Source: Solirubrobacteraceae bacterium (GTDB lineage Bacteria; Actinomycetota; Thermoleophilia; Solirubrobacterales; Solirubrobacteraceae). Taken from it: a DNA stretch of 41,059 nucleotides. The position numbers and the translations under genes are program-made. This document shows positions 11,216 through 35,245 of the stretch, piece by piece. The DNA lies in assembly GCA_025934395.1 (NCBI GenBank), contig JAICYC010000022.1, positions 1-41,059 of the forward strand. The letters run 5' to 3'. Every line of letters starts with the position of its first letter. The first letter of the stretch is position 1. The notes under the pieces were generated by a model. The model was not told the DNA's origin, did not search any database, and worked only from the letters and a program-made list of their open reading frames with translations.

Positions 11216-11241
11216 GCTCCTGGCGTGGGGGATCCGCACCG

Positions 11242-12653: not shown

Positions 12654-12722
12654 CGCCGCATCATCGCCTACGCCCATGCTGGACCCGGCGCGCGCTGCGG
12701 CGTAGGATCGCAGCGACGCTGC

Positions 12723-13169: not shown

Positions 13170-13170
13170 C

Positions 13171-17034: not shown

Positions 17035-17139
17035 TCTCTACCCGCGCCCGCGCATCGGAAACACGGCCGATCGGACGGCTCAAATCGGGCGGCCACCGCG
17101 GCGCCCCGGCCCGGCGGGCGCCGGCGGCGTGGCCGGCGG

Positions 17140-17145
17140 TACGGT
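17140..17145 (+). promoter_or_regulatory. -10 box of exonuclease III gene
   Basis: TACGGT ends six bases before the GTG at 17152, consistent with a leaderless transcript and with choosing 17152 over the GTG six bases later. Confidence 0.45.
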
Positions 17146-17151
17146 GCGCGT

Positions 17152-18015: not shown

Positions 18016-18016
18016 T

Positions 18017-18053
18017 GCGGAGGGCGAGGCGCGAAGGCGCCCCCGCCCTCCGC
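18017..18053. terminator. bidirectional hairpin between xth and VOC gene
   Basis: Perfect 10-base inverted repeat (GCGGAGGGCG / CGCCCTCCGC) with a nested GGCGC/GCGCC stem in the loop. It lies between two convergent stop codons, so it can terminate both transcripts. Confidence 0.7.
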
Positions 18054-18066
18054 GGGGGCGCGAGGG

Positions 18067-19482: not shown

Positions 19483-19555
19483 CTCCGCCTCCGTCTCCTT
19501 GCCCACACAGGAAATCCCCGCAAATCCAGAGCTTCAAGGCCCCTGCCGGCTGAAA

Positions 19556-19683: not shown

Positions 19684-20649
19684 TCACACGCGCGCGCGGA
19701 GGTGCTCGGCGACGTCGGTGATGACTCGGTCGAGACCGAGCCGGGGCTCCCAGCCGAGCAGCGCGCGCACCTTGGAGATGTCGGGGATCCGCCGGTGCAT
19801 GTCCTCGAACCCTTCGCTGTAGGCCTCGGCGTAGGGGATCAGGCGGATCTCCGAGGAGGAGCCGGTGACGCTCACGATCCGCTCGGCGAGCCCCTCGATG
19901 GAGATCTCGGTGGTGGCGCCCACGTTGAACACGTTGCCGGCGGCGCCGGGGTGCTGCAGGAGGCCCGACAGCGCGCGCACGACGTCGGCGACGTGGCAGA
20001 AGCAGCGCCGCTGGGTGCCGTCGCCGAACACCGAGAGCGGCTCGCCGGCGAGCGCCTGCCCGACGAGCGTGGGCACGACCATCCCGTAGCTGCCCGTCTG
20101 GCGCGGGCCGACCGTGTTGAACAGCCGCACGACGGTGACGGGCAGCTCGCGCTCGCGCCAGTAGGCCATCGCGAGGAACTCGTCGATCGCCTTCGAGCAC
20201 GCGTAGGCCCAGCGGGACTTGTCGGTGGCGCCCATCTGCAGGTCGCCGTCCTCGCGGAACGGCAGCGCGGCGCTCTTGCCGTAGACCTCGCTCGTGGACG
20301 CGAGCAGCACGGGCTTGCGGTGCTCGTCTGCGCGCGCGAGCACGACCTCCGTGCAGTGGACGTTGGTCTCGATCGCGCGCACGGGGCTCTCGACGACGAG
20401 CCGCACCCCGACGGCGGCGGCGAGGTGCACGATCGCGTCGGCCTCCGCGACGAGCCGGTCGAGCACGTCGTCGTCGGCGACAGAGCCCACGGTCAGCTCG
20501 AACGCGGCGTTGCCCTCCAGCTGGGCCAGGTTCTGCAGGCCGCCCGTGGAGACGTCGTCGAGCGCGTGCACGGTGTGCCCCTCGGAGACGAGCATGTCGC
20601 ACAGGTGCGAGCCGATGAAGCCCGCGCCGCCGGTGACGAGCACCCGCAC
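19684..20649 (-). CDS. NAD-dependent nucleotide-sugar epimerase/dehydratase (SDR)
   Basis: 321-residue extended SDR. VRVLVTGGAGFIGSHL is the Rossmann GxxGxxG motif at the N terminus. Further features are IVHLAAAVGVRLVVESP, STSEVYGKS (catalytic Ser/Thr) and RWAYACSKAIDE, the YxxxK catalytic pair in the form YACSK. Sugar-binding segments RLFNTVGPRQTGSYGMVVP and FGDGTQRRCFCHVADVV follow. The pattern is closest to UDP-glucuronate decarboxylase or UDP-glucose 4-epimerase-like enzymes; the product cannot be fixed. It likely supplies a sugar donor to the adjacent glycan genes. GTG start at 20649, 13 bases after the stop of the Gly-rich protein gene, so probably co-transcribed. Confidence 0.9.
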   Translation of the reverse strand: MRVLVTGGAGFIGSHLCDMLVSEGHTVHALDDVSTGGLQNLAQLEGNAAFELTVGSVADDDVLDRLVAEADAIVHLAAAVGVRLVVESPVRAIETNVHCTEVVLARADEHRKPVLLASTSEVYGKSAALPFREDGDLQMGATDKSRWAYACSKAIDEFLAMAYWRERELPVTVVRLFNTVGPRQTGSYGMVVPTLVGQALAGEPLSVFGDGTQRRCFCHVADVVRALSGLLQHPGAAGNVFNVGATTEISIEGLAERIVSVTGSSSEIRLIPYAEAYSEGFEDMHRRIPDISKVRALLGWEPRLGLDRVITDVAEHLRARV

Positions 20650-20662: not shown

Positions 20663-21205
20663 TCACTGCGTCGGCCGGGGCCCACGGCGATGGCGCAGCA
20701 CCGTGCCACCGAACCCGGCGAGCACGAGGATCGCGACCCCTCCGCCGATCAGCACCAGCAGCGAGGAACCCCCTGACGAGCTGTCGCCGGCGCCGTGCAG
20801 CACCGCCGCGGGCGTGGCCCCGCCGCCGGCGCCTCCGCCGCTCGCCGAGCCCCCCGACGACGCGCCGGGGCCGGTCGCGCCACCCGTGCCGGTGCCGCCG
20901 CCGGATGCCCCGGCACCGGACCCGCCGTGCCCCGACCCGGAGCCGTGGCCCCCGCCCCCGTGACCGGAGCCGCTGCTCGGCGGCGTGATGCCGGTGCCGA
21001 ACAACGCCGCTTCGGTGCCGGAGGACCCCCCGCCACGGCCGCCTTCGCGCGCCTGGCTGAGCGGGATCGCGTATTCCTTGGCAGCCGGCGAGCCCGGGTC
21101 GATGTGCACGCCCGGTTCGACCGCGAGCGCGGGCGTCGCGCCGGCGATCAGACCCACTGCGAGAACCGCGAACGCCCCCTGTTTCCGGCTCCGCACGGAG
21201 CGCAT
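20663..21205 (-). CDS. exported Gly/Ser-rich protein with C-terminal membrane anchor
   Basis: 180 residues. The order is a signal peptide (RKQGAFAVLAVGLIAGATPALA), a short conserved-looking segment (HIDPGSPAAKEYAIPLSQAREGG), then about 80 residues almost entirely Gly, Ser, Ala, Thr and His. A C-terminal transmembrane helix (SLLVLIGGGVAILVLAGFGGTVL) ends in RHRRGPRPTQ. The topology is a type I surface protein held by a C-terminal helix with a basic stop, like a sortase substrate but with no LPXTG. The Ser/Thr-rich linker is a plausible O-glycosylation target. The ATG at 21205 is supported by a -10 box six bases upstream. It lies between the epimerase and the polymerase fusion on the same strand. 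Confidence 0.82.
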   Translation of the reverse strand: MRSVRSRKQGAFAVLAVGLIAGATPALAVEPGVHIDPGSPAAKEYAIPLSQAREGGRGGGSSGTEAALFGTGITPPSSGSGHGGGGHGSGSGHGGSGAGASGGGTGTGGATGPGASSGGSASGGGAGGGATPAAVLHGAGDSSSGGSSLLVLIGGGVAILVLAGFGGTVLRHRRGPRPTQ

Positions 21206-21265: not shown

Positions 21266-24253
21266 TCAGCGTGCGGGACCCCGGGGCGGTGCCGCCAGGC
21301 CCGCGAGCCCTGCGTCGCGGGGGTTGAGCACGTGGGCGCGCGCGTAGTAGGCGCGCGCCGCCGCGGGCCGGCGCAGACGCTCGGCGACGTCGCCGAGCAG
21401 CGCCCAGGTCACGAAGTTCCGGGGCTCGAGGGCGATCGCACGGCGCAACGCGGCCTCCGCGGCGGCGGCCTGGTCGTAGCGGGCGAGCGCAGCGGCCTTC
21501 GCGTAGTAGGTGGTGACCGCGTCCGAGTCGATGCTGAGCGAGCGGTTCGCGTCCGACAGCGAGGCGGCGGGATCGCGCGCGAGCTCGTGCTGCGCGCGTT
21601 CGCGGTAGATCTGCGCCAGCCCCTGGCGGCTGAGGCTCGCGCCGGCGACGATCAGCACGATCAGGACCGCCGCCACGGCGGCGGCGGCGAGCGCGCGTCG
21701 GGGCGTGCGGCGCGGGTCGGCCTGCGCGGGCTCCAACAGGCGCGTGGGCGCGGGGCGCTGCCACACGAGCACGCACGCGGCGATCAGCGCGACGGCGGTG
21801 AGGCCGGGGAGCAGCGCCATCCAGTCGACGCTCGCCTGTACGAGCCACGCGCCGAAGGCGCCGAGGCCCGCCGTCAGCAGCCCGCGCCGCAGCGGCATCC
21901 GCGCGGCTCCCTCACGCATGCGTGCCGCTCCCCACAGCACCCCCGCGACGAAGGCACACAGCAGCAGGAACCCCGCGAGCCCGAGCTCGGAGAGCGTCTG
22001 CAGCCAGATCGAGTGGGGCTGATCGACGTCCTCGACCGTGGCGCGCCGTTCGTAGTAGGGGCGCGCGTAGTTGCCCGCGCCGACACCCGCGAACGGATGG
22101 TCGCCGAACACCCGCCACGCCACGCGCCAGTAGTCGTAGCGATTGCCGCCGCCAGACAGCAGCCGGGTCTGGCCGGCTGCGGCCGAGCGCCCCGCTTCGC
22201 CCGGTTCGCCGAGGTGCACGAACGCGTGCCACTGCCCGCTCACCTCGCGCGAGACGCGGTGCGCCGAGGCGATGCCGACGCCCACCGCCGCGAGCGCGGC
22301 GAGCGCGAGCGCGAGCGCACCGGCACGCCGAGCGCGGGCGCGCAAGGGCGCGGGGGCCGCGAGGCGCGAGAAGCCGGCCACGAGCGCCGCCCACACGACC
22401 CCGACGGCGAGGGAGGCGATCAGCGCGGCGCGCCCGGCGGCGTGCCCCACGCCCGCGGGGAGCGCCGCGTCGGCGCGATGCTCGTAGACGTGGAGCAGGT
22501 CCGTGCCCGCGAGCGCGACCCCCGCGGCCACCACCAGCAGCCCGTATGCGCGCGGCAGGCGTCCGGGGACGAGCGCCATCACGAGCACGAGCGAGCCGAG
22601 CAGCGCGAGCGCCGTGCCGCGCGACTGCGTGAGCAGCGCGAGGCATGCGAGCAGCGTCGCGAGGCCGGCACCGGCCCCCGCGACCGCGGCACGGCGGTGC
22701 TCGAGCAGGGCTGCGCACGGCCACAGCGCGACCGCGAACAGGCAGCCCTCGCCGTTGATATAGCCGAGCGGCGACTCCAGGCGCCCGCCGAGGAACAGCG
22801 AGCCCGGGTCCGAGCCGAGCAGGCGCACGAGCACCGACACCGCGACGGCGAGGATCCCCACCTCGGCGGCCCCGAGCAGCACCGCGGCGCGCCGATCGTG
22901 GCTCACGAGCGCGATCGTGAGCACGAGCAGGGCGCCGTAGGCGAGCCAGCGGTTGCCCGAGACGACCGCGTTCTCGACCGATTCGGCCCACGCGCTCGAC
23001 GCGAGCGACCACGCGCCGAGGCCGAGCAGGCCCGCGACGCACAGGATCGCGGGGGCGGTGAGCCGCGGCGGCGCCAGCACGACCGCGATCGCCCCCACGA
23101 GCGTGACCCCGAGCCCGGCGGGGACCCACACGGCGGTGTCGAAGTAGGCGAAGAAGAACGGGCTGACGCCCGTCCCCAGACCGAGCACCACGAGGCACGC
23201 GAGCGCGCGTTTGCTCAGCCGCGGCGGCGGTGCGGGCGCCTGGGTCGATGGCGCCGGGAAGGTCTGCGTGTCGAGCACGATGATCGCGGCGCCGGCGGCG
23301 AGCAGGTAGGCGCTCGCGCCGAGCACCACGAGCGCCGCTTCGCCGCGGCGGGCGAGGACGGCTAGCACCGACAGCGCGGCCTGGGCCACGCCGAGCGCGA
23401 GCGCCACCGCACGCGGGTTGGACAGGTAGCGGAGCGTCCGATGGGTGAGATGGTCGCGGCCGCCCTGCAGCACCGACACGCCTCGGCGCCGGCGCGAGAC
23501 GATCACGAGGCTCGTGTCGAGCGCGGGGATCCCCACGAGCAGCAGGGCCACCAGCAGCGAGCGCCACGCGGCGGTGCTGGTGCCGGCGGCGGCCATCACG
23601 AACACCGCGACGACGAAGCCGAGCGGCATGCTGCCGCCGTCGCCGAGGAAGATCCGCGCGGGGACGGCCATGTTGCGCGGCATGAAGCCCGCGCACGCGC
23701 CGCACAGACACGCGGCGCCCGCCGCGATCCAGACCTCGCCCTGCACCACCCCGATCACCGCGGCGCCGCCGGCGACGACGAGCGCCATCGCGCTCGCGGC
23801 GCCGTCCATGTTGTCGAAGAGGTTGAACGCGTTCACCACCCCCAGCACCCACACGCACGTGAGCACGAGGTCGACGAGGGTGCCCGCATGCAGGTCCCAG
23901 CCGAGGTCCACCGCCCACATCAGCGCCCCGAGCGCCAGCTCGACCGCGATGCGCAGCAGGGGCGAGAGCGAACGGCGGTCGTCGAGCGTCCCCAGCGCGC
24001 ACAGCGCGATCGCCGCCGAGAGCAGCGGGGCGGTGCGATCCCACGAACCGGCCACGATCGCGGTTGCGAGGACGAACGCGCCCAGCACGGCGATGCCGCC
24101 GAGGTAGGGCGTGGGCCGGCCGTGGCCCTTGTAGCCCACGGGCTCGTCGTAGAAGCGCATGCGGCCCGCGAGCCGGATCGCGTACGGCGTCGCGGCGAAC
24201 GCGAGCCCGGCGGCGATCGCGAAACCCGCGGCCACCCGCTCGGCGAGCGTCAT
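21266..24253 (-). CDS. fusion: WecA/MraY-type phosphoglycosyl transferase + O-antigen ligase/polymerase-like domain + TPRs
   Basis: 995 residues in one frame. Residues 1 to about 310 are a polytopic polyprenyl-phosphate sugar-1-phosphate transferase: GTLDDRRS (Asp91-Asp92), NAFNLFDNMDGAAS (about 141-154), RIFLGDGGSMPLG (about 200-212) and GRDHLTHR (about 265-272). Residues about 345-850 are a second polytopic unit with O-antigen ligase/Wzy features: LTQSRGTALALL (about 541), and GDHPFAGVGAGNY with DVDQPHSIWLQTLSELGLAG (about 717-761) in the large periplasmic loop. After a further helix (about 856-875), residues 880-985 form tetratricopeptide-like helices. GGAGG five bases before the ATG fixes the start. 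The frame is unbroken, with no frameshift or internal stop. It likely primes a lipid-linked glycan and later polymerises or transfers it; coupling of the steps is inference. Confidence 0.92.
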   Translation of the reverse strand: MTLAERVAAGFAIAAGLAFAATPYAIRLAGRMRFYDEPVGYKGHGRPTPYLGGIAVLGAFVLATAIVAGSWDRTAPLLSAAIALCALGTLDDRRSLSPLLRIAVELALGALMWAVDLGWDLHAGTLVDLVLTCVWVLGVVNAFNLFDNMDGAASAMALVVAGGAAVIGVVQGEVWIAAGAACLCGACAGFMPRNMAVPARIFLGDGGSMPLGFVVAVFVMAAAGTSTAAWRSLLVALLLVGIPALDTSLVIVSRRRRGVSVLQGGRDHLTHRTLRYLSNPRAVALALGVAQAALSVLAVLARRGEAALVVLGASAYLLAAGAAIIVLDTQTFPAPSTQAPAPPPRLSKRALACLVVLGLGTGVSPFFFAYFDTAVWVPAGLGVTLVGAIAVVLAPPRLTAPAILCVAGLLGLGAWSLASSAWAESVENAVVSGNRWLAYGALLVLTIALVSHDRRAAVLLGAAEVGILAVAVSVLVRLLGSDPGSLFLGGRLESPLGYINGEGCLFAVALWPCAALLEHRRAAVAGAGAGLATLLACLALLTQSRGTALALLGSLVLVMALVPGRLPRAYGLLVVAAGVALAGTDLLHVYEHRADAALPAGVGHAAGRAALIASLAVGVVWAALVAGFSRLAAPAPLRARARRAGALALALAALAAVGVGIASAHRVSREVSGQWHAFVHLGEPGEAGRSAAAGQTRLLSGGGNRYDYWRVAWRVFGDHPFAGVGAGNYARPYYERRATVEDVDQPHSIWLQTLSELGLAGFLLLCAFVAGVLWGAARMREGAARMPLRRGLLTAGLGAFGAWLVQASVDWMALLPGLTAVALIAACVLVWQRPAPTRLLEPAQADPRRTPRRALAAAAVAAVLIVLIVAGASLSRQGLAQIYRERAQHELARDPAASLSDANRSLSIDSDAVTTYYAKAAALARYDQAAAAEAALRRAIALEPRNFVTWALLGDVAERLRRPAAARAYYARAHVLNPRDAGLAGLAAPPRGPAR

Positions 24254-24266: not shown

Positions 24267-24944
24267 TCAGGGCTTGGTGGCGCTCCTGCGCGCTTCGCGC
24301 TCCACGCGTTCTCGGTAGACGCCCTGCAGGAACAGCGCGTTCGTCCCCTGGCGCGCCGCTTCGCGCGAAGGCTTGGTGGCGAGCGGTTCGATCTGCGCCT
24401 GGGTCCTGGCCTGGGCGACGCGCTGGAGCGCGGGGTTCAGCAGCGAGAAGTACGACACGAGCCATTCGCCGTGCTTGCCCTTTTCGAAGGAGATCGAGGC
24501 CGGCGTCACCGACCCGGTTTCGTCGCGCGCGAGGAACGTCACCGCCGCCCCCGAGGCGCCCGCGCGGGCGGTCACGATGTGCGGCTTGGTCGACTGCCAG
24601 ACGATCACGTCGGAGGCGAGCGACTGCGTCAGCAGCGCGCTGCCGATCTGTTCCACGAGCCCCGGCTCGAACAGCGTGGCGGCCTGGTCCCACGCCTGAT
24701 ACTGCAGCAGGGACCACAGTCGCAGGAACGTCTGCTGGCCGGCTTCGTCGCTGGTCCGCGCGATTTCGGACTGCTTGACGAGGCGGTCGCCGAGCGGCGC
24801 GGTCCTTGCGAGGATGCTCGCGCCCTGGAGCTCCTGCGCCTGCTGCTTCTGGGCGCTGCCCCCGCATCCCGCGAGCACGAGGACCGCCACCACGGGCCCG
24901 AGCGCGGCGAGCGCACGGGATCGGCTGCGAGCGAGCACCCCCAT
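24267..24944 (-). CDS. lipoprotein of unknown function
   Basis: 225 residues with a lipoprotein signal peptide (ALAALGPVVAVLVLAGC, lipobox LAGC, Cys about 27). The mature part starts with a Gln-rich helix, then an NTF2/SnoaL-like pattern: EAGQQTFLRLWSLLQYQAWDQAATLFEPG, later AAVTFLARDETGSVTPASISFEKGKHGEWLVSYFSLL. This suggests a cone-shaped binding fold on the outer face of the membrane; I infer the fold only from the pattern. It ends 13 bases before the start of the large fusion gene on the same strand, so it is probably the first gene of that operon and an accessory to the glycan machinery. Confidence 0.83.
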   Translation of the reverse strand: MGVLARSRSRALAALGPVVAVLVLAGCGGSAQKQQAQELQGASILARTAPLGDRLVKQSEIARTSDEAGQQTFLRLWSLLQYQAWDQAATLFEPGLVEQIGSALLTQSLASDVIVWQSTKPHIVTARAGASGAAVTFLARDETGSVTPASISFEKGKHGEWLVSYFSLLNPALQRVAQARTQAQIEPLATKPSREAARQGTNALFLQGVYRERVEREARRSATKP

Positions 24945-25039: not shown

Positions 25040-26368
25040 ATGCTTGCAGTCACCGTGAGCTCGATCCTGCCAGCGATCGTCGCCTGCGCGGCCCTCGCGC
25101 TGTGCGCTTGGCGCCTGCAGATCCTGCACCCCGTGACGCTGTGGTCGGCCTCGTGGGCAGCGTCGACGCTGCTGTACGCGCTGCGCCTGCTGCCCTACCG
25201 CGACCTCGGCTGGCTCACCACGCTGCTGATCTGCGGGTCGATCGCCGTGTTCGCCGCGGCGGTCCCGCTCGGCGCGCGGCTCGCCGGAAAGCTCGCGCGG
25301 ACCCGCCCCGGCCCGCCTCCGCAGGCCGGGCTCCGAACGCCGGATGACCGTCGGGTCGAGGTCGCGGCGGCGCTGGCGATCGGCCTGCTCGCGGTCACGC
25401 TCGCCGCGTTCCTGGCCCGCCTGATCGCGAAGTTCGGGGTCAGCCACGCGCTGCGGATCTCCGCCGAGGTGAAGGTGTACCTGTCGAGCAACGAAGCGCC
25501 CGCGTCGGGCATCTACGTCGAGTTCGCGATCGCCGCGGCGGCGCTGTGCGGCCTCGCGTGGGCGCGTGCGCGGACGCGGCGCGGCAGGCGCGGCTGGCTC
25601 GTTGCGGCACTGGCGTGCGCGGCGTCCGTGTACTTCTCCACGAGCCGCGGCTTCATCGCGGTCGCCCTCGCCTCGGCGCTGGTGGCGGCGGCGCTCGGGC
25701 GCGGCGCGATGCCGAGGCGCCGCATGATCGCGAGCGCGCTGGCGGCAGGCGTCGTCGTCGTCGCCCTGTTCGTGGGCCTCGGCGCGGTGATCGGCAAAAC
25801 CTACGGCAACAGCTCGATCGGCCAGTTCGACAACTTCTTCTCCAGACACCACGCTGCGAGCTCGCTCGCCCTCCCCTACCAGGATGCGACCGCGAGCATC
25901 CCCGCGCTCGACCTGCTCGTGCGCTACTCGCCCACGTTCGGCGTCGCGCACGGCTGCGCGACCGCGCCGATCGTCTGCGGCGCGCTCAGGAAACTGGGAC
26001 TGCACGTGGTGCGGGTGCCGGTGGCGGGGCAGTTCACCGCGCTGCCGCTGCAGTGGAACGCCTACACGTTCCTCGACCGCTTCCTGATCGACTGGGGTCC
26101 CGCGCTCACGCTCGTGCTGGTCGCGATCACGGGACTGATCGCCGGCTTCGTGTGGGCGCTCGCGCGCGCGCGGTCAACGGTGGGCATCCTGCTGTACGCG
26201 ACATGCGCACCCGCGCTCGTCGCCGCATATCGCCAGAACCTGATCGAGCTGGTAGCGCTCGCCGCGGGGCTCGCGATTGTGGCGCTGCTCGCGGGCGGGC
26301 GCCTCGCGCGCTCGGAGCCGATCGCGAGCCGTCTCTCGGCGATGCGCTCGGCCACGCGCGCGCTCTGA
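25040..26368 (+). CDS. polytopic O-antigen polymerase (Wzy)-like protein
   Basis: 442 residues with about 10-11 hydrophobic helices. A large extracytoplasmic loop around residues 250-350 carries GKTYGNSSIGQFDNFFS, VAHGCATAPIVCGALRK and FTALPLQWNAYTFLDRFLIDWG. The STSRGFIAVALASALV segment (about 195) resembles the SR-G motif of polymerases of the oligosaccharide-repeat-unit polymerase group. No RfbX/Wzx pattern is present, so polymerase is more likely than flippase. The ATG at 25040 follows GGTGG. It is divergent from the lipoprotein-fusion operon and converges on a glycosyltransferase gene. A polymerase-like domain also exists in the fusion protein, so roles may be divided between chain growth and chain transfer. 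Confidence 0.82.
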   Translation: MLAVTVSSILPAIVACAALALCAWRLQILHPVTLWSASWAASTLLYALRLLPYRDLGWLTTLLICGSIAVFAAAVPLGARLAGKLARTRPGPPPQAGLRTPDDRRVEVAAALAIGLLAVTLAAFLARLIAKFGVSHALRISAEVKVYLSSNEAPASGIYVEFAIAAAALCGLAWARARTRRGRRGWLVAALACAASVYFSTSRGFIAVALASALVAAALGRGAMPRRRMIASALAAGVVVVALFVGLGAVIGKTYGNSSIGQFDNFFSRHHAASSLALPYQDATASIPALDLLVRYSPTFGVAHGCATAPIVCGALRKLGLHVVRVPVAGQFTALPLQWNAYTFLDRFLIDWGPALTLVLVAITGLIAGFVWALARARSTVGILLYATCAPALVAAYRQNLIELVALAAGLAIVALLAGGRLARSEPIASRLSAMRSATRAL

Positions 26369-26376: not shown

Positions 26377-27333
26377 TCACGCCCGGCGGGGGTCAGGGCC
26401 ACGGCCGCGGCCCCGCACGAGCGCGCCGTCGAGCAGCTCGCACGAGCCCGCGCGCAGCCGCCGGCGCTGCGCGAGCAGCCTGGGAGCGGCCCGGATCGCG
26501 GCGAGGGCGCCCGCGAGCGCCGCCCGCGCGGTGTGGCGAAACGGGCTCGCGGCCAGCGTGCGCGCGGTCAGCGCGAGGGCCCCCGCGACGCCGCCCGGCG
26601 GGAGCACCTTCAGCGCCGTGGCGAGACGGTTGCGCACGGTCCGCTCGACGTTCAGGATCCTCCCGCCGTCGCTGCCGCCCCACCCGGCGTGGCCCACGTG
26701 AACCGCGCGCGCGTCGGGCACGTACGCGAAGCGCCACCCCGCGAGCCGCGCGCGGGCGTTCAGGTCCACGTCCTCGTAGAAGGCGAAGTACGTCTCGTCG
26801 TAGCCGCCGAGGTCGGCGAACAGCTCGCGGCGCAGCAGGCATGCCGCTCCCGAGACGCCGAAGACCTCGCCGCCGTCGTCGAAGTCGGCGCCGTCGGGCT
26901 CGCCCCACCCGCGCTCGAACGCCGAGCCGTGCCGCGTGAGCAGCTGCCCCGCGCTGTAGAGCACCGGCGGACCGGGGCCGGCCTGCACGATGCGCGGCTG
27001 CGTCCCGCCGAGGCCGGGGTCGGCGGCGAGCGCCTGCGAGAGCGCGAGCGCGCACCCGGCCGCCAGGAAGCAGTCCGCGTTCAGCACCAGCACGAAGGGC
27101 GCCCTGGTCCGGGCGGCACCGAGGTTCACCGCGCGCGCGAAGCCGACGTTCTCCTGCAGCTCGAGGAGCGGCACGCCGAGCTCCCGCAGGACCTCGCTCG
27201 ACCCGTCGCGCGAGCCGTTCTCGACGACGAGGAGCTCCACCTCCACCCCCTCCTGCGAGACCGCCGCGGCGACGCACCGCTCGATGTGGGCGGCGGTGTT
27301 CCAGCTCGGGATCACCACGGCGATCTCGGTCAT
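26377..27333 (-). CDS. family 2 glycosyltransferase (rhamnosyltransferase-like)
   Basis: 318 residues of GT-A fold. Blocks are IAVVIPSWNTAAHIERCV at the N terminus, LLVVENGSRDGSSEV (nucleotide contact), FARAVNLGAARTRAPFVLVLNADCF (the DxD-like NAD), VFGVSGAACLLRRELFADLGGYDE, and FYEDVDLNARARLAGW with the catalytic ED. The C-terminal region has Ala-rich amphipathic helices that may touch the membrane. The profile resembles WbbL/RfbF rhamnosyltransferases. The start ATG at 27333 overlaps the stop of the upstream glycosyltransferase gene as ATGA, so both are one translationally coupled unit. Confidence 0.92.
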   Translation of the reverse strand: MTEIAVVIPSWNTAAHIERCVAAAVSQEGVEVELLVVENGSRDGSSEVLRELGVPLLELQENVGFARAVNLGAARTRAPFVLVLNADCFLAAGCALALSQALAADPGLGGTQPRIVQAGPGPPVLYSAGQLLTRHGSAFERGWGEPDGADFDDGGEVFGVSGAACLLRRELFADLGGYDETYFAFYEDVDLNARARLAGWRFAYVPDARAVHVGHAGWGGSDGGRILNVERTVRNRLATALKVLPPGGVAGALALTARTLAASPFRHTARAALAGALAAIRAAPRLLAQRRRLRAGSCELLDGALVRGRGRGPDPRRA

Positions 27334-28217
27334 CGAGCCCTCCGCGCGAGGACCCCGCGCACCCCCACGGCGAGCAGTTTGAGGACGCAGCGAGCGCCGA
27401 GCGCGAGCGCCGCCGCCGCAACCGAGAACGGCGAGCGCGCGACGTGCTTGCGCCAGTAGCGGAGCGCGCTGCGATGGAACGCGATCGTGGTGGCGGCGGG
27501 ACGCTCGCGGCTGCTGGCGCCCTGCGCGTGGCGCACGACGAGCGCGGGCTCGTAGACCACGGCGAGCCCGAGGTCGTGGGCGCGCCTGCACCAGTCGGCG
27601 TCCTCCCAGTACATGAAGTAGCCCTCGTCGAGCGGCCCCACCTCGGCCATGCGCGCCGCGGGGACGATCAGGCACGCGCCCGAGACCCAGTCGACGCGCC
27701 GCGCGCCGCCCTCGGCGCCGGCCCGCAGCTCGCGTCGCAGTAGCGGGCTGCCCGGCCGCAGGCGCGCGAGCAGCGAAGAGCGGCCGAGCAGCGCGGTCCG
27801 TGCGCGTGGGAAGCCGCGCGCGGACTGCTCGGTGCGACCGTCGGCCCCGACCACCAGCGGGCCGCGCGCGCCGAGGCCGGGCGGCCAGTCGAGCATGGCG
27901 AGCCGGGCGAAGAAGTCCTCTGCGACCTCGACGTCGGGGTTCAGGAGCACGATCAGCTCGCATCCGCGCAGGCGCTGCACCGCCACGTTGGCCCCCGCCG
28001 CAAAGCCGCGGTTGCGTGCCAGCTCGACCACGTCGGCCCACGGCGCGTGCTCGCGCACGCGCGCAGCGGTGCCGTCCCCGGAGGCGTTGTCCACGACGGC
28101 CGCCCGCACCTCGCCGGCGAAGCCCGCGGCGCCGCGGGCGCGCTCGATCGCCGCGAGCGCGCGCACGGGCTCATCCCCGCCTCTGAACGTGACCATCGCG
28201 ACCCCGAACACGGCCAC
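27330..28217 (-). CDS. family 2 glycosyltransferase
   Basis: 295 residues. VFGVAMVTFRGGDEPVRALAAI opens the GT-A domain. AAVVDNASGDGTAARV, FAAGANVAVQRLRGCELIVLLNPDVEV (metal motif region), VDWVSGACLIVPAARMAEVG and YFMYWEDADWCRRAHDLG (catalytic ED) follow in the usual order. It is a paralogue of the gene downstream and of the one across the divergent promoter at 28274. GTG start at 28217 with TAGCCT six bases upstream, suggesting a leaderless message. It is first gene of a two-gene unit with an ATGA overlap. Confidence 0.92.
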   Translation of the reverse strand: MAVFGVAMVTFRGGDEPVRALAAIERARGAAGFAGEVRAAVVDNASGDGTAARVREHAPWADVVELARNRGFAAGANVAVQRLRGCELIVLLNPDVEVAEDFFARLAMLDWPPGLGARGPLVVGADGRTEQSARGFPRARTALLGRSSLLARLRPGSPLLRRELRAGAEGGARRVDWVSGACLIVPAARMAEVGPLDEGYFMYWEDADWCRRAHDLGLAVVYEPALVVRHAQGASSRERPAATTIAFHRSALRYWRKHVARSPFSVAAAALALGARCVLKLLAVGVRGVLARRAR

Positions 28218-28223
28218 GCGCCC

Positions 28224-28229
28224 AGGCTA
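28224..28229 (-). promoter_or_regulatory. -10 box, minus-strand glycosyltransferase unit
   Basis: TAGCCT on the minus strand, six bases before the GTG at 28217. With the plus-strand -10 at 28261-28266 it makes a compact divergent promoter region of about 56 bases. Confidence 0.5.
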
Positions 28230-28260
28230 CCCGCTCGGGATCGCGCTCCGCTTCTGCGGA

Positions 28261-28266
28261 TACCGT
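28261..28266 (+). promoter_or_regulatory. -10 box, plus-strand glycosyltransferase unit
   Basis: TACCGT preceded by GGA and ending seven bases before the ATG at 28274, the optimal spacing for transcription to begin at the start codon. Confidence 0.55.
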
Positions 28267-28273
28267 CTGTGCG

Positions 28274-29215
28274 ATGAGCGCGGGCCCGCGGGTGTCGGTG
28301 GTGGTGGTCACCCACAACAACAGCCTGCTGATCGGCGACTGCCTGCGGGCGATCTCCGCGTCGCTCCCCGACGGCGGCGGCGGCGAGGTGATCGTGGTCG
28401 ACAACGCCTCCGGCGACGACACGATCGCCGCGATCGAGCGCACCGGGCTCGCGGTGGAGGTGGTCGCGCTGCAGCACAACGTGGGGTTCGCCGGAGGCGT
28501 CAACCGCGGGCGCGAGCGCGCGCAGGGCGCCTGCGTGGCGCTGGTCAACAGCGATGCGTTCCCCGACCCGGGCTGCATCGCCCGCCTGCTGGAGCGGCTC
28601 GAGCGGGACCCGAGGGCGGGCATCGTGGGCGCGGGCCTGCGCTACCCCTCCGGCGAGCTGCAGCCGTCCGCGGGCACGTTCCCGTCGCTGCTCGGCGGAT
28701 TGTGGGTGGCGCTGTTCCTGCACCGCGCGCCGGGGCTCTCCCGGATCGGGATCGGGTACCTCGCCGTTCCCGGCCTCTACCGCCGCGCGCGGCGGGTGGA
28801 CTGGGTCTCGGGCGCCGTGTGCGCGGCGCGAGCCGACCTCCCGGCGCTGCCGGAGACGACGTTCATGTACGGAGAGGACGTGCGCTGGGCGGCGGCGTGC
28901 CGGGATGCCGGCCTGGAGGTGTGGGTCGAGCCTGCGGCCACGGCGGTCCACATCGGCCGGGCGAGCGTGGACGCCAGCCAGGATCCTGGCTTCGCGCAGC
29001 GTCAGCGTGTCGCGTTCGAGCTCGCGTGGTTCGCGCCGCGGGGCGCTGCCGCCGTGCTGGCCGCACGCGGCGTGCTCGTCCTGCACGCGCTTGCGCGGAT
29101 CGTCGTGTTCGGCGCGCTCGACGCGGCGCGCGGTCGCGGCGGTGGGCGGGTACGCGAGTACGGCGCGCTCGCACGCGCGGCCGTGACGATGAGCATCCCG
29201 GCGGCGCGAACATGA
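28274..29215 (+). CDS. family 2 glycosyltransferase
   Basis: 313 residues. The GT-A domain shows PRVSVVVVTHNNSLLIGDCL, VIVVDNASGDDTIAAI, FAGGVNRGRERAQGACVALVNSDAFPD, VDWVSGAVCAARADL and TTFMYGEDVRWAAACRDAG. A C-terminal hydrophobic segment (AAAVLAARGVLVLHALARIVVFGAL) may anchor it to the membrane. Like its two neighbours it resembles rhamnosyl/galactofuranosyl transferases of surface polysaccharides; acceptor and donor are unknown. The stop overlaps the start of the next glycosyltransferase as ATGA, so the two are coupled. Confidence 0.92.
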   Translation: MSAGPRVSVVVVTHNNSLLIGDCLRAISASLPDGGGGEVIVVDNASGDDTIAAIERTGLAVEVVALQHNVGFAGGVNRGRERAQGACVALVNSDAFPDPGCIARLLERLERDPRAGIVGAGLRYPSGELQPSAGTFPSLLGGLWVALFLHRAPGLSRIGIGYLAVPGLYRRARRVDWVSGAVCAARADLPALPETTFMYGEDVRWAAACRDAGLEVWVEPAATAVHIGRASVDASQDPGFAQRQRVAFELAWFAPRGAAAVLAARGVLVLHALARIVVFGALDAARGRGGGRVREYGALARAAVTMSIPAART

Positions 29216-30285
29216 GCGGCGCCCCGCGCCGTGTCCTGTTCGACGCGCTCGCTGCACGCTTCGGCGGCGGCGCGCACGCGGCTGCCCAGATCGCGTTGCA
29301 CCTCGCCCGAACCCCCGCCGTCGCGGCGATCACGGTGGTCGCACGCCGCGACTCGATCGTCGCGGAGCGGCTCGCGGGCGCGGAGGGCGTGAGCGTGGTG
29401 CAGCTTCCCGCCGCCGCCGCGCTCGAGCTGCCGCGCCGCGTTGCGTGGGAGGCCTTCCGCCTGGGCGCCCTCGCGCGCCGCGAGCGAAGCGACGTGCTCC
29501 TCACGATGACGGCGCTGCCCGCTCGCGTCCGCGACGCCCGCCTGGTGTGCGTCTTCGCCAACCCGGTGATGTACGAAACCGACACCGCGGCCAACCGGCT
29601 GCGCCGGCGGGCCACGCGACGCACCGTACGCGACGCCTCCTATCTCGCAGCCCCGTCGTCGATGATGGCGGGGCTCGTCTCCGACTACCTCGGACGGCCG
29701 TGCGCGGTGCTGCCGCTCGGGGTCGATCACCAGGCCTTCACCCCCGCCGATCCCCCGGGAGAGGAGGTCCTGTGCGTGGCGGACTTCTACGCGCACAAGC
29801 GCCACGACGTGCTGCTCGATGCGTGGGCGTCGCTGCCGGCGCCGCGCCCGCGCCTGCGGCTGATCGGCGACCCCGCGGTGGACCCGGGCACGTTCGCGCG
29901 CGTACGCGAGCGCGTGGCGCTCCTCGGTGAGGGCGCCGGCGAGGTCTCGATCGAGCACCGTCTGCCCATGGCGCGGCTCGTCGAGGCCTACCGCGCGGCG
30001 CGCGTGTTCGTGATGCCCTCCGAGCGCGAGAGCTTCTGCATGCCGCTCGCCGAGGCGATGGCCTGCGGCGTGCCGGCAGTGGCGCGCTCGATCGAGAGCC
30101 TGCGCGAGACGGGCGGCGAGGGGGCCCTGTACGTGCGGGACGCCGACCCCGCCGTCTGGAGCGCGGAGATCGCTCGCGTGCTGGGCGACGGCGGCGTCCA
30201 CACGCGACTGCGCGCCGCGGCGATCGCCGCGGCCTCCCGCTTCTCGTGGGAGCGCGGCGCAGCGCAGCTCTCCGAGCAGCTGTAG
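29212..30285 (+). CDS. GT-B glycosyltransferase (GT4 family)
   Basis: 357 residues. N-terminal acceptor domain with FDALAARFGGGAHAAAQIALHLAR. A linker leads into the C-terminal donor domain: AVLPLGVDHQAFTPAD, VLCVADFYAHKRHDVLLDAW, RLRLIGDP, and FVMPSERESFCMPLAEAMACGVPAVAR with the E-x7-E nucleotide-sugar site. This is a retaining GT4 enzyme of the kind that extends lipid-linked oligosaccharides. The ATG at 29212 overlaps the preceding stop by four bases, which rejects a much longer in-frame reading that runs back through the previous gene. Confidence 0.92.
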   Translation: MSGAPRRVLFDALAARFGGGAHAAAQIALHLARTPAVAAITVVARRDSIVAERLAGAEGVSVVQLPAAAALELPRRVAWEAFRLGALARRERSDVLLTMTALPARVRDARLVCVFANPVMYETDTAANRLRRRATRRTVRDASYLAAPSSMMAGLVSDYLGRPCAVLPLGVDHQAFTPADPPGEEVLCVADFYAHKRHDVLLDAWASLPAPRPRLRLIGDPAVDPGTFARVRERVALLGEGAGEVSIEHRLPMARLVEAYRAARVFVMPSERESFCMPLAEAMACGVPAVARSIESLRETGGEGALYVRDADPAVWSAEIARVLGDGGVHTRLRAAAIAAASRFSWERGAAQLSEQL

Positions 30286-30306: not shown

Positions 30307-30312
30307 GTGCGC

Positions 30313-31122
30313 GTGGCGGACGCCGCCCCCACTCCGTCGCTCGCGGACCGCGTCGCGGCGGTGGACTGGTACCACACGCTCTCGCTGCCGGGCGGGGTCG
30401 TCACCCCCGGCAGCTTCGACACCGCGGACGAGCTGACCCGCATCCCCTTCCCGGAGTCGCTCGCAGGACGACGCTGCCTGGACGTCGCCACCGCGGACGG
30501 GTTCTGGGCCTTCGAGATGGAGCGCCGCGGGGCCGCGGAGGTGCTCGCGATCGACCTCCGTCACGAGCGCCTGGACTGGCCCGCCGATCGCGTGGACCAG
30601 CCGGGCGACGGGCTCTCGCGCTCGCGCTCGGGGTTCGAGCTCGCACGCGAGGCGCTGGGGTCCAGCGTGACTTGGCGCGAGCAGTCGGTCTACGAGCTGG
30701 ACCCCGGGGAGCTGGGGGAGTTCGACTTCGTGTTCGTCGGCAGCCTGCTCGGCCATCTCCGCGATCCGATCGCGGCGCTCGCGGCGCTCGCGGGCGTGCT
30801 GCGGGGGGAGCTGCTGTCGGTCGACTTCATCTCGGCGCCGCTCACACTCAGGCACCCGCGCGCGCCGGTGGCACGCCTGGAGGGACACGACTGGCCGCTG
30901 TGGTGGGTTCCGAACCTCGCCGCCTACCGGTCGATGTTCGGGGCTGCGGGGCTGCGCGTGCTCGCCGCCGGCCGCCCGTTCTTCGTCAAGCGGGGGCTGG
31001 GCTACAGCGGCGCCTACGGCCTCGAAGGGGCGCGCGTGCCGCTCCACCGGAGGCTGCGCCACGCCGCGACGGCGTCGCTGGGCAACATGCACGCGTGGGT
31101 GCGCGCGGAGGCGCGTCGCTAG
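30313..31122 (+). CDS. SAM-dependent methyltransferase, CmoB/DUF1698-like
   Basis: 269 residues. The N-terminal segment VAAVDWYHTLSLPGGVVTPGSFDTADEL followed by GRRCLDVATADGFWAFEMERRGAAEVLAIDL (SAM site) is the pattern of the CmoB-like methyltransferases often found in glycan clusters. FDFVFVGSLLGHLRDPIAAL is the post-II motif. A true tRNA CmoB would be longer and lie elsewhere, so sugar methylation or a related carboxymethyl-type reaction is more likely. The stop TAG shares a CTAG with the stop of the convergent gene. The next upstream gene ends 27 bases away. Confidence 0.87.
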   Translation: MADAAPTPSLADRVAAVDWYHTLSLPGGVVTPGSFDTADELTRIPFPESLAGRRCLDVATADGFWAFEMERRGAAEVLAIDLRHERLDWPADRVDQPGDGLSRSRSGFELAREALGSSVTWREQSVYELDPGELGEFDFVFVGSLLGHLRDPIAALAALAGVLRGELLSVDFISAPLTLRHPRAPVARLEGHDWPLWWVPNLAAYRSMFGAAGLRVLAAGRPFFVKRGLGYSGAYGLEGARVPLHRRLRHAATASLGNMHAWVRAEARR

Positions 31123-32057
31123 CGCCGCAGGACGGCGAGCGCGTGCAGCGTGTCGCGCTCGCCGCCCGCCCCGTCGAGCGCCCACGTCAGCGGGTAACAC
31201 ACGCAGCACACGGCGGCGAGCGCCCGCAGCTTCAGGCCACCCGGCGCGATGCACCGCCCCACGAGGGCGTACTGGAGGCTCGCGGGCAGCCCGAGCACGC
31301 TCGTCGAGCTCCACATCCGCAGCGGTTCGAGCCCGGCTGCGCGGAGGGCGCGGGCGAGCGCGTCGCCGCCGAGGTGCGTGCGATGGCGTGGGAGGTCGAG
31401 GTGGAACCAGCGGCCGCGGAACGCCCGCCGCTGCCACGAGGCGTAGTTCGGGAGCGAGACCGCCACCCGCCCGCCCGCGGCGAGCGCCTCGCGCACGCGG
31501 CGCAGGTCGGACACGGGGTCGGCGAGGTGCTCCAGCGAGTGGCGCATGATCACCAGGTCGTAGCTCCCGGGGCGCAGCGGCGCGCGCGAGAGCGTGGGCG
31601 CGAGCACCTCGACGCCGTTCGTGCCCGCGACGGCCGCAGCCTGCGCGGAGGGCTCGATCCCCGCGACGCGCCAGCCGCGGGCGATCAGCGCGCCTGCCAG
31701 CTCTCCGCGGGCGCAGCCGACATCGAGCGCCACGCCGGGAGCCCCGGCGAGCGCGTCTGTGAACGGGCGCGAGCGCAGGATCGCCCCGGCCTGCAGGCGC
31801 TTGAGCGCGGCCAGCGCGCGTCCGAGGACGCCCGCGGAGCCGTCGGCGTGCGAGCCGTAGCCCTCGGGGTAGAGCGCCGCGAGCTCCTCCTCGGCGAGCT
31901 GCGGCTCGGTCGTGCCCGCGCCGCAGCGCGAGCACGTGCGCACCTCGAAGCGTCCGGGGAGGCCGAGCAGGCGGTCCCCGCCGACGATCGAAGGGCGCAC
32001 GGGCAGCTCGCCGTCGCAGAACGGGCAGCGCCGCAAGCTCGCGTCGGGCGTGGTCAC
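31119..32057 (-). CDS. class I methyltransferase with N-terminal zinc-ribbon
   Basis: About 312 residues. Two CxxC knuckles (RRCPFCDG near residue 11 and RTCSRCGAGTTEPQ near 43) form a zinc ribbon. A SAM fold follows: VALDVGCARGELAGALIARGWRVAGIEPS, YDLVIMRHSLEHLADPVSDLRRVREAL and GRVAVSLPNYASWQRRAFRGRWFHLDLPRH. This is the architecture of many polysaccharide-associated methyltransferases. A hydrophobic C-terminal stretch containing CCVCY may be membrane-peripheral. GTG at 32057 is my choice; an in-frame GTG at 32075 adds MCKCPC and would back into the divergent promoter. Confidence 0.88.
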   Translation of the reverse strand: MTTPDASLRRCPFCDGELPVRPSIVGGDRLLGLPGRFEVRTCSRCGAGTTEPQLAEEELAALYPEGYGSHADGSAGVLGRALAALKRLQAGAILRSRPFTDALAGAPGVALDVGCARGELAGALIARGWRVAGIEPSAQAAAVAGTNGVEVLAPTLSRAPLRPGSYDLVIMRHSLEHLADPVSDLRRVREALAAGGRVAVSLPNYASWQRRAFRGRWFHLDLPRHRTHLGGDALARALRAAGLEPLRMWSSTSVLGLPASLQYALVGRCIAPGGLKLRALAAVCCVCYPLTWALDGAGGERDTLHALAVLRR

Positions 32058-32067
32058 GCACGGACAC

Positions 32068-32097
32068 TTACACACGGCCGGGCGGCGGACCTATACT
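32068..32097 (+). promoter_or_regulatory. promoter TTACAC-N18-TATACT
   Basis: TTACAC (32068-32073), 18-base spacer, near-consensus TATACT (32092-32097), 11 bases before the ATG at 32109. The leader would be only a few bases. Confidence 0.6.
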
Positions 32098-33007: not shown

Positions 33008-33628
33008 ATGGACGCGACGGGACCGGCGCCCGAGCCCGTGCCCTGGTGGACCCGCCTTGCACGGCGCGTGCGCGAGCACCCGCCTGAGCTCCCCCCCGGC
33101 GTGACGGTGGGACGGCACTCCTACGGCTACGACGCCGACACGTTCCCGATCTACACCGAAGGGGCGCGGATCGAGGTGGGCGCGTTCTGCAGCATCGGCC
33201 CCGGCGCACGCATCCACGGCGGGGGCGAGCACGTGATGACGCGCGCGAGCACTTTCCCGCTCAACGCGCTCCTGTTCGACCCGGCGCGCCGCAACGCCCT
33301 CGACGACCTCGCCACCGGCCCGACGGTGATCGGGAACGACGTGTGGGTCGGCAGCGGCGCGACCGTGCTCGCCGGCGTCACCGTCGGCGACGGCGCGGTG
33401 GTGGGCGCGGCAGCCGTGGTCACCAGCTCGGTGCCGCCGTACGCGGTCGTCGTCGGGAACCCCGCGCACGTGATCCGCTACCGCTTCGAGGCCCCCATCC
33501 GCGAGCGCCTGCTGGCGCTGCGCTGGTGGGAGTGGAGCGACGAGCAGATCCGCGCGCTGCGCGACGCGTTCATGTCGGACGTCGAGTCCTTCCTGGGCGC
33601 AGTCGAGCGGGAACAACCGAGCCGGTGA
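33008..33628 (+). CDS. hexapeptide-repeat (left-handed beta-helix) acyltransferase
   Basis: 206 residues of the CatB/Vat xenobiotic-acyltransferase type. The N-terminal segment VTVGRHSYGYDADTFPIYTEGARIEVGAFCSIGPGARIHGGGEHVMT contains the conserved start of the helix. Repeats follow (VIGNDVWVGSGATVLAGVTVGDGAVVGAAAVVTSSVPPYAVVVGNPAHVI), then the C-terminal RYRFEAPIRERLLALRWWEW. In a glycan cluster it most likely O-acetylates a sugar rather than an antibiotic. The last 59 bases overlap the 3' end of the convergent flippase gene. Confidence 0.92.
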   Translation: MDATGPAPEPVPWWTRLARRVREHPPELPPGVTVGRHSYGYDADTFPIYTEGARIEVGAFCSIGPGARIHGGGEHVMTRASTFPLNALLFDPARRNALDDLATGPTVIGNDVWVGSGATVLAGVTVGDGAVVGAAAVVTSSVPPYAVVVGNPAHVIRYRFEAPIRERLLALRWWEWSDEQIRALRDAFMSDVESFLGAVEREQPSR

Positions 33629-35081: not shown

Positions 35082-35245
35082 TGCACCCCAGACCGGGACG
35101 GCGCCCGGGCGCAGCATGACAGTCGCCCCGCCGTCCCCGCTCGCCTGCGTCGCCACCGCGTCCGTGCGCGGGCGCCCGGCCAGGCGCGGCTGCCGGCGCG
35201 TGCGGCGCCGCACGCGGGCTACCCTGGGTAGGGCAAGGGGGTTCT

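What the first reader, a model, noticed from the sequence alone, without database searches (positions are those of the whole stretch)
21266..24253. One polypeptide combining glycan-priming transferase, O-antigen ligase/polymerase-like module and TPRs
Residues 1-310 carry the WecA/MraY motifs (DD, NxxNxxDNMDG, LGDGG, HLTHR). Residues 345-850 carry an O-antigen ligase-like core with a periplasmic loop motif, and 880-985 look like TPRs. Priming (cytosolic face) and ligation or polymerisation (outer face) are normally separate proteins. A fusion would physically couple the first and last steps on one undecaprenyl-phosphate pool. With the co-oriented lipoprotein, Gly/Ser-rich anchored protein and epimerase, it could be a self-contained glycan-priming and transfer system.
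Basis: partly seen in the sequence, partly recalled or inferred. Interest (0 to 1): 0.75.

Follow-up and report, generated by a model that had tools for sequence, protein, structure and literature searches.

The report
Fused glycan-starting and glycan-attaching membrane enzyme
In a group of environmental actinobacteria, one giant membrane protein joins an enzyme of the type that starts a surface sugar chain inside the cell to one of the type that attaches or extends such chains outside, and it travels with a small tethered surface protein that may be its partner or target.

Summary
Window 21266-24253 (-) is one 995-aa frame: a polytopic phosphoglycosyltransferase (PGT) half (PF00953, 88.7 bits, cut-off 27), a Wzy_C half (PF04932, 60.7, cut-off 31.7) and a C-terminal TPR. 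It is no artefact: 13 of 101 genomes of the window's order, its own included, have both halves in one frame, and motif residues of both halves are invariant in 12 aligned members. The AlphaFold model (pLDDT 90.5) and loop charges put PGT motifs inside, Wzy_C loop and TPR outside. Split versions exist. Best reading: priming enzyme fused to an O-oligosaccharyltransferase/ligase of Wzy_C+TPR (WsfB/PglL-like) architecture; hardly a WaaL (no LpxC found), probably not the repeat-unit polymerase, since the window has a separate one (TIGR04370). New here: a small TM-anchored protein with a conserved N-terminal motif occurs in 12 of 13 fusion genomes, 35-134 bp away in 9 of 12 whole fusion copies, and a PslG-like hydrolase in 11 of 13. 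Activities, acceptor and coupling are inferred. A new architecture of known parts.

The parts
21266..24253 (-). Fusion protein, 995 aa: PGT + Wzy_C + TPR
23270..24253 (-). Residues 1-328: polytopic phosphoglycosyltransferase half (WecA/MraY family), 11 TM helices drawn from the model, motif loops cytoplasmic
   Evidence: PF00953; MraY chains TM-score 0.61-0.78 by target length; conserved motifs; topology
23213..23269 (-). Residues 329-347: low-confidence, variable linker, predicted cytoplasmic
   Evidence: pLDDT blocks 59-76; variable in the alignment
21629..23212 (-). Residues 348-875: Wzy_C/O-antigen-ligase-like transferase module, large predicted extracytoplasmic loop 663-748 with R705, R710, H747
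   Evidence: PF04932; WaaL 7tpg is the only fold match with E <= 0.001 for this half alone; invariant residues
21269..21628 (-). Residues 876-995: TPR domain, predicted extracytoplasmic
20663..21205 (-). Small exported-looking Gly/Ser-rich protein with a conserved N-terminal motif and a C-terminal hydrophobic helix; conserved partner
   Evidence: no Pfam or NCBIfam family
19684..20649 (-). Extended SDR NDP-sugar epimerase/dehydratase, neighbour in most fused loci
   Evidence: PF01370 183 bits; nearest solved relatives UDP-glucuronate decarboxylases, E 2e-50
24267..24944 (-). Lipoprotein-like gene directly upstream, not generally conserved
25040..26368 (+). Separate oligosaccharide repeat-unit polymerase (Wzy type), divergent neighbour
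   Evidence: TIGR04370 48.6 bits, cut-off 40; relatives in 3 of 101 genomes, own included
26377..28217 (-). Two GT2-like glycosyltransferase genes (about 26377-27354 and 27330-28217)
28274..29215 (+). GT2 glycosyltransferase
27649..30285 (+). ORF whose C-terminal part (residues 703-858) is a GT1-type glycosyltransferase; the true gene probably starts downstream
30307..32075 (.). Two methyltransferase genes (30307-31122 +, 31119-32075 -)
33570..35213 (-). Wzx-like flippase
   Evidence: PF01943 35.8 bits, cut-off 28.2; Wzx_EPS E 1e-13, below its cut-off
35246..36340 (+). Secreted PslG-like glycoside hydrolase, found with the fusion and also with a stand-alone Wzy_C gene
   Evidence: profile A3 hits PslG, E 6.1e-9; 24 of 101 genomes, 11 of 13 fusion genomes; L029

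Best explanation
The protein is a bifunctional initiating-and-transferring enzyme. [quoted passage not shown] Cluster glycosyltransferases extend the unit, a Wzx-like flippase turns it over, a separate Wzy-type protein (25040-26368) polymerises it where needed, and the Wzy_C half of the fusion, with its extracytoplasmic TPR, transfers the lipid-linked glycan to a cell-surface acceptor, working like the Wzy_C+TPR O-oligosaccharyltransferases PglL and (putatively) WsfB. The small tethered protein encoded next door is the best candidate for that acceptor or for a TPR-docked adaptor. Fusing first and last steps could match priming to release and keep undecaprenyl phosphate from being trapped. Shown: one conserved frame, family membership of each part, invariant motif residues, a confident model with a consistent predicted topology, conserved partners. 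Inferred: the enzyme activities, ligation rather than polymerisation, the acceptor, and any coupling.
For: Both families over cut-off; motif residues invariant in 12 fusions; MraY and WaaL fold matches; loops assigned inside carry 16.7 Lys+Arg per 100 residues, outside 6.2, TPR tail left out. The genome also has an MraY and another WecA-like enzyme, so this is a third PGT. Split relatives lie as overlapping frames or in the same cluster, so the halves probably serve one pathway. A separate repeat-unit polymerase sits beside it; relatives of that are in G004 and on the contig of one G060 fusion, and G032 has a separate Wzy_C protein near its fusion. No LpxC was found. WsfB and PglL carry Wzy_C plus a C-terminal TPR (PMC2943079, passages). 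The tethered protein is in 12 of 13 fusion genomes against 5 of the 88 others or 6 of 88 (Fisher p 2e-10, relatedness not corrected).
Against: PF04932 is used for polymerases as well as ligases (recalled), and the hits to ligase/OTase models are weak (PEP_O_lig_1 24.5 of 188 bits, TfpM 18.5 of 600). The WaaL match is loose (TM 0.60 by target, rmsd 12 A). A relative of the window's separate polymerase was found in only 3 of 101 genomes, and three of ten other many-TM neighbours tested gave nothing decisive. The PslG-like hydrolase fits an exopolysaccharide too, and it also sits by a stand-alone Wzy_C gene (L029). The tethered protein has no invariant Ser or Thr, its linker varies from Gly/Ser-rich to Thr-rich to Lys/Arg-rich, it is 16-20 kb away in G057 and G067, and it was not found in G080. 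In 88 of 101 genomes no one-frame fusion was seen (some are incomplete, cut or split), so coupling is not generally needed.
Confidence: 0.5

Rival explanations
1. The fused Wzy_C half is the repeat-unit polymerase of a Psl-like exopolysaccharide pathway; the fusion joins priming and polymerisation, and the product is released or trimmed by the PslG-like hydrolase.
For: PslG-like hydrolase in 11 of 13 fusion genomes; Wzx-like flippases in the window and near two other fusions, L040 and L072; the 15 TM helices I drew for the second half are near the 10-14 reported for Wzy (PMC12004945, passages); no relative of the window's separate polymerase in 98 of 101 genomes.
Against: A separate repeat-unit polymerase stands beside it in the window; fusion proteins stay 42-63% identical to the window's over their length while Wzy polymerases are described as sharing low identity; Wzy_C+TPR is the architecture named for WsfB and PglL.
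Confidence: 0.3
2. The halves are merely co-translated: a fusion of operon neighbours with no functional coupling, selected for stoichiometry or not at all.
For: Split forms persist, including rows nested in the fused clade (G245, G408), so the link can be lost; the linker is variable.
Against: Fused form kept in two families of the order over 42-63% identity, with both halves conserved; the same 13 fused rows form one clade (with one split row) in both half-trees.
Confidence: 0.15
3. Assembly or annotation artefact.
For: The window genome is a 151-contig draft; the Svornostia copy has a frame break near residues 62-69.
Against: 13 of 101 genomes and 15 of 80 named loci (sets that overlap) carry both halves in one frame.
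Confidence: 0.01

Closest known systems
WsfB (Paenibacillus alvei S-layer O-oligosaccharyltransferase, putative) and PglL (Neisseria)
   Same: Wzy_C domain plus C-terminal TPR, transfer of a lipid-linked glycan to protein (PMC2943079 passages); WsfB is from a Gram-positive
   Different: Priming is by a separate protein there (WsfP, WbaP-type); here a WecA/MraY-type polytopic PGT is the N-terminal half of the same chain. Their sequences were not compared here; WsaB, the Geobacillus counterpart, lacks the TPR.
WecA / TagO / MraY polytopic PGTs
   Same: PF00953, motifs, MraY fold
   Different: Table 1 of a 2024 research paper lists polytopic PGTs as 'PGT only' (PMC10942596 passages); here fused to a transferase and TPR
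WaaL O-antigen ligase
   Same: PF04932; only solved fold matched at E <= 0.001 by the second half alone
   Different: No LpxC found in the genome, so no lipid A-core acceptor expected; extra TPR and PGT
Bifunctional monotopic PGTs (Bi-PGTs)
   Same: Initiating enzyme fused to another functional domain (PMC10942596 passages)
   Different: Different PGT superfamily; the partner here is predicted to act on the other face of the membrane
Psl pathway of Pseudomonas (PslG)
   Same: Neighbouring secreted hydrolase is PslG-like
   Different: No fused PGT-Wzy_C known to me there (recalled)

Membership tests
Polytopic phosphoglycosyltransferase (PF00953, WecA/MraY) | Profile score over the curated cut-off | tested here: met
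   88.7 bits against 27
Polytopic phosphoglycosyltransferase (PF00953, WecA/MraY) | DD, NxxNxxDxxDG, LGD and HxxHR-type motifs | tested here: met
   Key positions invariant in 12 fusions; motif names recalled
Polytopic phosphoglycosyltransferase (PF00953, WecA/MraY) | MraY fold | tested here: met
   5jnq TM 0.78 by target; ranks 1-30 are MraY or DPAGT1 chains, E <= 1.7e-4
Polytopic phosphoglycosyltransferase (PF00953, WecA/MraY) | Sugar-1-phosphate transfer to undecaprenyl phosphate | not testable with these tools
   needs an assay
WecA equivalog (TIGR02380) or MraY equivalog (TIGR00445) | Score over the curated cut-off | tested here: not met
   95.0 of 326 and 26.3 of 192 bits for the PGT half
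Wzy_C / O-antigen ligase superfamily (PF04932) | Profile score over the curated cut-off | tested here: met
   60.7 bits against 31.7
WaaL O-antigen ligase | Organism makes a lipid A-core acceptor | tested here: not met
   No LpxC match in the own genome (91% complete); 4 of 14 control genomes ring
Wzy_C+TPR O-oligosaccharyltransferase (WsfB/PglL type) | Wzy_C with C-terminal TPR | tested here: met
   predicted outside; architecture from PMC2943079
Wzy_C+TPR O-oligosaccharyltransferase (WsfB/PglL type) | Score over an O-glycosylation ligase/OTase cut-off (PEP_O_lig_1, TfpM) | tested here: not met
   24.5 of 188 and 18.5 of 600 bits
Wzy_C+TPR O-oligosaccharyltransferase (WsfB/PglL type) | Transfers glycan to a protein | not testable with these tools
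   needs glycoproteomics
Repeat-unit polymerase (Wzy) | Only polymerase candidate of its cluster | tested here: inconclusive
   Not met in the window (TIGR04370 at 25040-26368), G004, one G060 cluster and G032; other clusters not settled
PslG-like hydrolase (neighbour 35246-36340) | Similarity to PslG | tested here: met
   profile E 6.1e-9 to 5bx9, profile positions 50-193; no Pfam family

The most novel reading that the evidence does not exclude
A dedicated surface-glycosylation module in which one polypeptide both starts the glycan on the inner face and attaches it on the outer face to, or with the help of, a purpose-built tethered peptide protein; occupancy of the outer TPR/acceptor site feeds back through the same chain on the priming site, a built-in version of the ligase-to-initiator control that Hong and Reeves proposed for WaaL and WbaP.
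Probability: 0.25. Interest if true: 0.85.

Novelty: new variant of a known kind. Interest (0 to 1): 0.6.

Why it matters
How cells match the start of a lipid-linked glycan to its release, so that undecaprenyl phosphate is not trapped, is an open question: a 2024 paper says that understanding of the regulation of these pathways 'remains limited' (PMC10942596 passages), and a 2025 review describes the harm of trapped undecaprenyl phosphate (PMC12826051 passages). Hong and Reeves proposed that the last enzyme (WaaL) signals to the first (WbaP) within a protein complex whose existence they listed as an open question (PMC4863624 passages). A natural first-plus-last-step fusion gives a single gene in which that idea can be tested by cutting the linker or killing one site. 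The tethered partner, without a Pfam or NCBIfam match, gives a concrete candidate acceptor or regulator in bacteria where the product of such clusters is unknown to me.

Tried and rejected
Artefact or frameshift: rejected on 13 of 101 genomes with one frame. WaaL-type LPS ligase: made very unlikely by the lack of LpxC. Lipoprotein as a conserved partner: one relative (L040) among the gene calls of 21 stretches. Plasmid-borne spread: tblastn against the plasmid collection gave 3 records, each matching only part of the PGT half. Fusions elsewhere in the phylum: the 396-genome phylum draw (E <= 1e-45) gave fused matches only in G000 and G030, both of this family; Planctomycetota loci L107 and L130 have the two families as adjacent separate genes. 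L085, first taken for adjacent separate genes, has a run of N at the junction and is undetermined; it is still labelled 'adjacent' in the tree, and its Wzy_C piece is in A2, A4 and the tree. A scan with motif variants for the tethered protein printed no hit, not even the known one, so its filters were at fault and it was dropped. Papers on this fusion: the listings (open-access PMC only; one search listed 20 of 21, one search listed 10 of 163, one search listed 10 of 189) showed none by title or abstract start; one search found no paper with 'Svornostia abyssi'. Of papers cited I saw passages only; all others in listings.
Full report
WHAT IS THERE. The window's minus strand holds one 995-codon frame at 24253-21266, with an ATG behind a GGAGG-rich stretch, 13 bases after the stop of the upstream lipoprotein-like gene. 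Pfam finds Glycos_transf_4 (PF00953, residues 77-221, 88.7 bits, cut-off 27) and Wzy_C (PF04932, residues 605-765, 60.7 bits, cut-off 31.7), both over their cut-offs, and TPR repeats under theirs. A profile of 12 fusion proteins matches consensus TPR structures strongly near residues 900-992, and MraY structures over the first part. Codon-position composition shows no break between the halves.

IT IS CONSERVED. Among 101 genomes (own included), 13 have both halves in one open frame: G000 (own), G004, G007, G009, G030, G032, G049, G050, G053, G057, G060 (two copies), G067 and G080; they belong to two families (f1, f2) of the order. G004 and G007 are cut by contig ends after residue ~746-759, and G053 lacks the first ~68 residues in that frame. 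In a draw of 399 genomes of the class (E <= 1e-70), 12 have one frame over both halves (G000, G004, G009, G030, G032, G050, G053, G057, G060, G067, G080, G241); in a draw of 396 genomes of the phylum (E <= 1e-45) only G000 and G030 do. In the scan of named GTDB genomes, 80 loci were kept of 170 relatives; 15 of the 80 have both halves in one frame (L059-L072 and L081; L060 and L070 cut by contig ends). Many are the same genomes as. Their titles name Solirubrobacterales, Solirubrobacteraceae, Solirubrobacter, Thermoleophilaceae or just Actinobacteria, and one isolate, Svornostia abyssi J379, which NCBI places in Thermoleophilia, Solirubrobacterales. The Svornostia copy has a frame break near residues 62-69. 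The scan used two peptides from the PGT half, so it is blind to fusions with a different PGT.

BOTH HALVES KEEP THEIR MOTIFS. In 12 aligned fusions (identity to the window's 42-63%; one lacks its first ~68 residues) D91, D92, N141, N144, D147, D150, G151, the LGDGG block, H268, H271 and R272 of the PGT half, and R545, R705, W709, R710, H747, Q752 and E756 of the second half are invariant. That the latter are the WaaL-type working residues is recalled, not tested. The own genome also has an MraY (TIGR00445, 314.5 bits over 192) and another WecA-like enzyme, so the fusion is its third PF00953 protein.

STRUCTURE AND TOPOLOGY. AlphaFold2 on an alignment of 45 sequences from the window and the GTDB loci gives mean pLDDT 90.5 and pTM 0.84, with low confidence in the linker and parts of two loops. 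The whole model matches MraY and DPAGT1 (5jnq TM-score 0.78 by target length) and, at E 3.6e-4, WaaL 7tpg. The second half modelled alone (pLDDT 89.1) has WaaL as its only match with E <= 0.001, at TM 0.60 by target length and rmsd 12 A, a loose match. From the model's helices I drew 11 TM helices for the PGT half and 15 for the rest, taking the N terminus as outside, as described for WecA (recalled). Under that assignment inside loops (with 4 residues on each side) carry 16.7 Lys+Arg per 100 residues and outside loops 6.2, averaged over the 12 fusions, TPR tail left out; the reverse orientation would break the positive-inside rule. This puts the PGT motifs and the linker inside, and the big Wzy_C loop (663-748) and the TPR outside.

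SPLIT FORMS. In L073 and L074 the PGT and Wzy_C proteins are in separate overlapping frames in the same order, with a candidate ATG of the second before the stop of the first; in L075 and L079 they lie 3-4 kb apart on opposite strands. Planctomycetota loci L107 and L130 also have the two families as adjacent genes. L085 cannot be judged because of a run of N. Trees of each half put the same 13 of 16 fused rows in one clade together with one split row (G245 in the PGT tree, 100/100; G408 in the Wzy_C tree, 89/100), and L066, L068 and L071 outside it. So the fusion arose more than once or has been lost, or both.

NEIGHBOURS. (1) Epimerase: a relative (E <= 1e-10) lies within 3.1 kb of the PGT half in 13 of 16 fused loci, though in three of these at only 32-34% identity; the misses are L060 and L070 (cut contigs) and L069. 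It is within 120 bp of the stand-alone PGT in 14 of 18 actinobacterial loci of that list, so this link is probably older than the fusion. Its nearest solved relatives are UDP-glucuronate decarboxylases; its substrate is unknown. (2) Tethered protein: searched with the window protein, 18 of 101 genomes match at E <= 0.001; with a profile of 11 members, 17 of 101 at E <= 1e-5. The same 12 of the 13 fusion genomes are in both sets; G080 is in neither. Of 12 fusion copies not cut by a contig end, 9 (G000, G009, G030, G032, G049, G050, G053, G060 twice) have it on the same strand 35-134 bp away, downstream in 8 and upstream in G050; in G067 and G057 it is 16-20 kb off, beside the hydrolase; G080 has none. 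In G004, G007 (twice), G013 and G015 it lies 42-134 bp downstream of contig-cut pieces of the gene. The profile's other hits, G045, G079 and G082, lie beside a Wzy_C-type gene (G045, G079) or on the contig of the PGT gene of a split pair (G082). Some profile members came from the genomes searched, so those hits are not independent. The protein has a signal-peptide-like start, a conserved stretch (consensus GVTVDPGSPAAKEYAxPLxxAR, then LFGxGI), a variable low-complexity linker and a C-terminal hydrophobic helix, mostly with a basic tail. (3) Hydrolase: profile A3 hits PslG (E 6.1e-9); 24 of 101 genomes have a relative at E <= 1e-30, 11 of 13 fusion genomes (not G004, G030) against 13 of the other 88; in 10 of the 11 it is on a fusion's contig within about 21 kb. 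It also sits 99 bp from a stand-alone Wzy_C gene (L029). Fisher p-values (2e-10 for the tethered protein, 9e-7 for the hydrolase) ignore relatedness. (4) The window also has GT2 and GT1 transferases, methyltransferases and a Wzx-like flippase.

LIGASE OR POLYMERASE. The divergent neighbour at 25040-26368 is a TIGR04370 repeat-unit polymerase (48.6 bits, cut-off 40; no Pfam match). Relatives occur in 3 of 101 genomes: here, in G004 and on the contig of one G060 fusion; three split or PGT-only loci (L075, L079, L080) show weak ones (25-27%, E about 4e-7). Of eleven other many-TM genes listed outside the window, ten were tested: G032's is a separate Wzy_C protein (68.2 bits), one on the contig of the other G060 fusion scores 27.6 against the Wzy_C cut-off of 31.7, L075's is TIGR04370 (69.6 bits), three are Wzx-like, one is an antiporter and three gave nothing decisive. 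This makes the polymerase role of the fused half less likely in at least some clusters. The Wzy_C+TPR architecture is that named for the O-oligosaccharyltransferases WsfB (putative) and PglL (PMC2943079 passages), and O-OTases recognise serines in low-complexity regions rich in Ala and Pro (PMC9239064 passages). Against this, scores to O-glycosylation ligase and OTase models are far below cut-off, and the tethered protein has no invariant Ser or Thr. Its Tyr44 is invariant in the 11 members, and tyrosine-linked S-layer glycans are known, which is only a lead. With no LpxC found an LPS ligase is very unlikely.

MECHANISM. I favour priming plus O-transfer on one chain (0.5), with priming plus polymerisation next (0.3). 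Physical coupling of the two ends is an attractive but untested idea: Hong and Reeves proposed that WaaL reports to the initiating enzyme WbaP (PMC4863624 passages), and trapped undecaprenyl phosphate is harmful (PMC12826051 passages).

NOVELTY. Parts are known. A polytopic PGT joined to a Wzy_C+TPR transferase was not seen in the paper listings named in Tried and rejected (open-access only, some listings partial), and a 2024 paper tabulates polytopic PGTs as 'PGT only' (PMC10942596 passages). I file it as a new variant of a known kind.

Noticed in passing
L129:9848-11818 and L120:4919-6727: Two other PGT fusions: Glycos_transf_4 followed by a CoA_binding_3 domain (PF13727, 49-55 bits; recalled as an accessory domain of large monotopic PGTs), in Gemmatimonadetes and Omnitrophota MAGs.
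   Followed up: no
L127:9890-11938: A Glycos_transf_4 frame that runs on into a porphobilinogen deaminase domain; could be an odd fusion or an assembly join.
   Followed up: no
L069:9990-10300 (Svornostia abyssi): Frame break near residues 62-69 of the fusion in an isolate chromosome: a decayed gene or a sequencing error.
   Followed up: partly
L043 (G080:C2) 6817-18107: Apparent repeat of the cluster: a second epimerase, a Wzy_C remnant and a hydrolase fragment beside the intact set.
   Followed up: no
L070 10001-13132 (G007): The first ~123 residues of the PGT half are repeated about 2 kb upstream of the fusion.
   Followed up: no
L073 and L074: Close relatives titled Actinomycetota and Proteobacteria, together in both half-trees; one record title is probably a binning or naming error.
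   Followed up: no
window 18655-19506 (-): Secreted-looking protein without Pfam match, with a relative near the epimerase in G013 (L049 949-1785).
   Followed up: no
window 13171-17034 (-): 1287-aa subtilase with FG-GAP repeats.
   Followed up: no
L035, L040, L042, L044, L046, L050: Asparagine-synthase-like genes recur near these loci (cluster c4, identity judged by their start sequence, not by a family search); wsfA of P. alvei is also listed as an asparagine synthase homologue.
   Followed up: no
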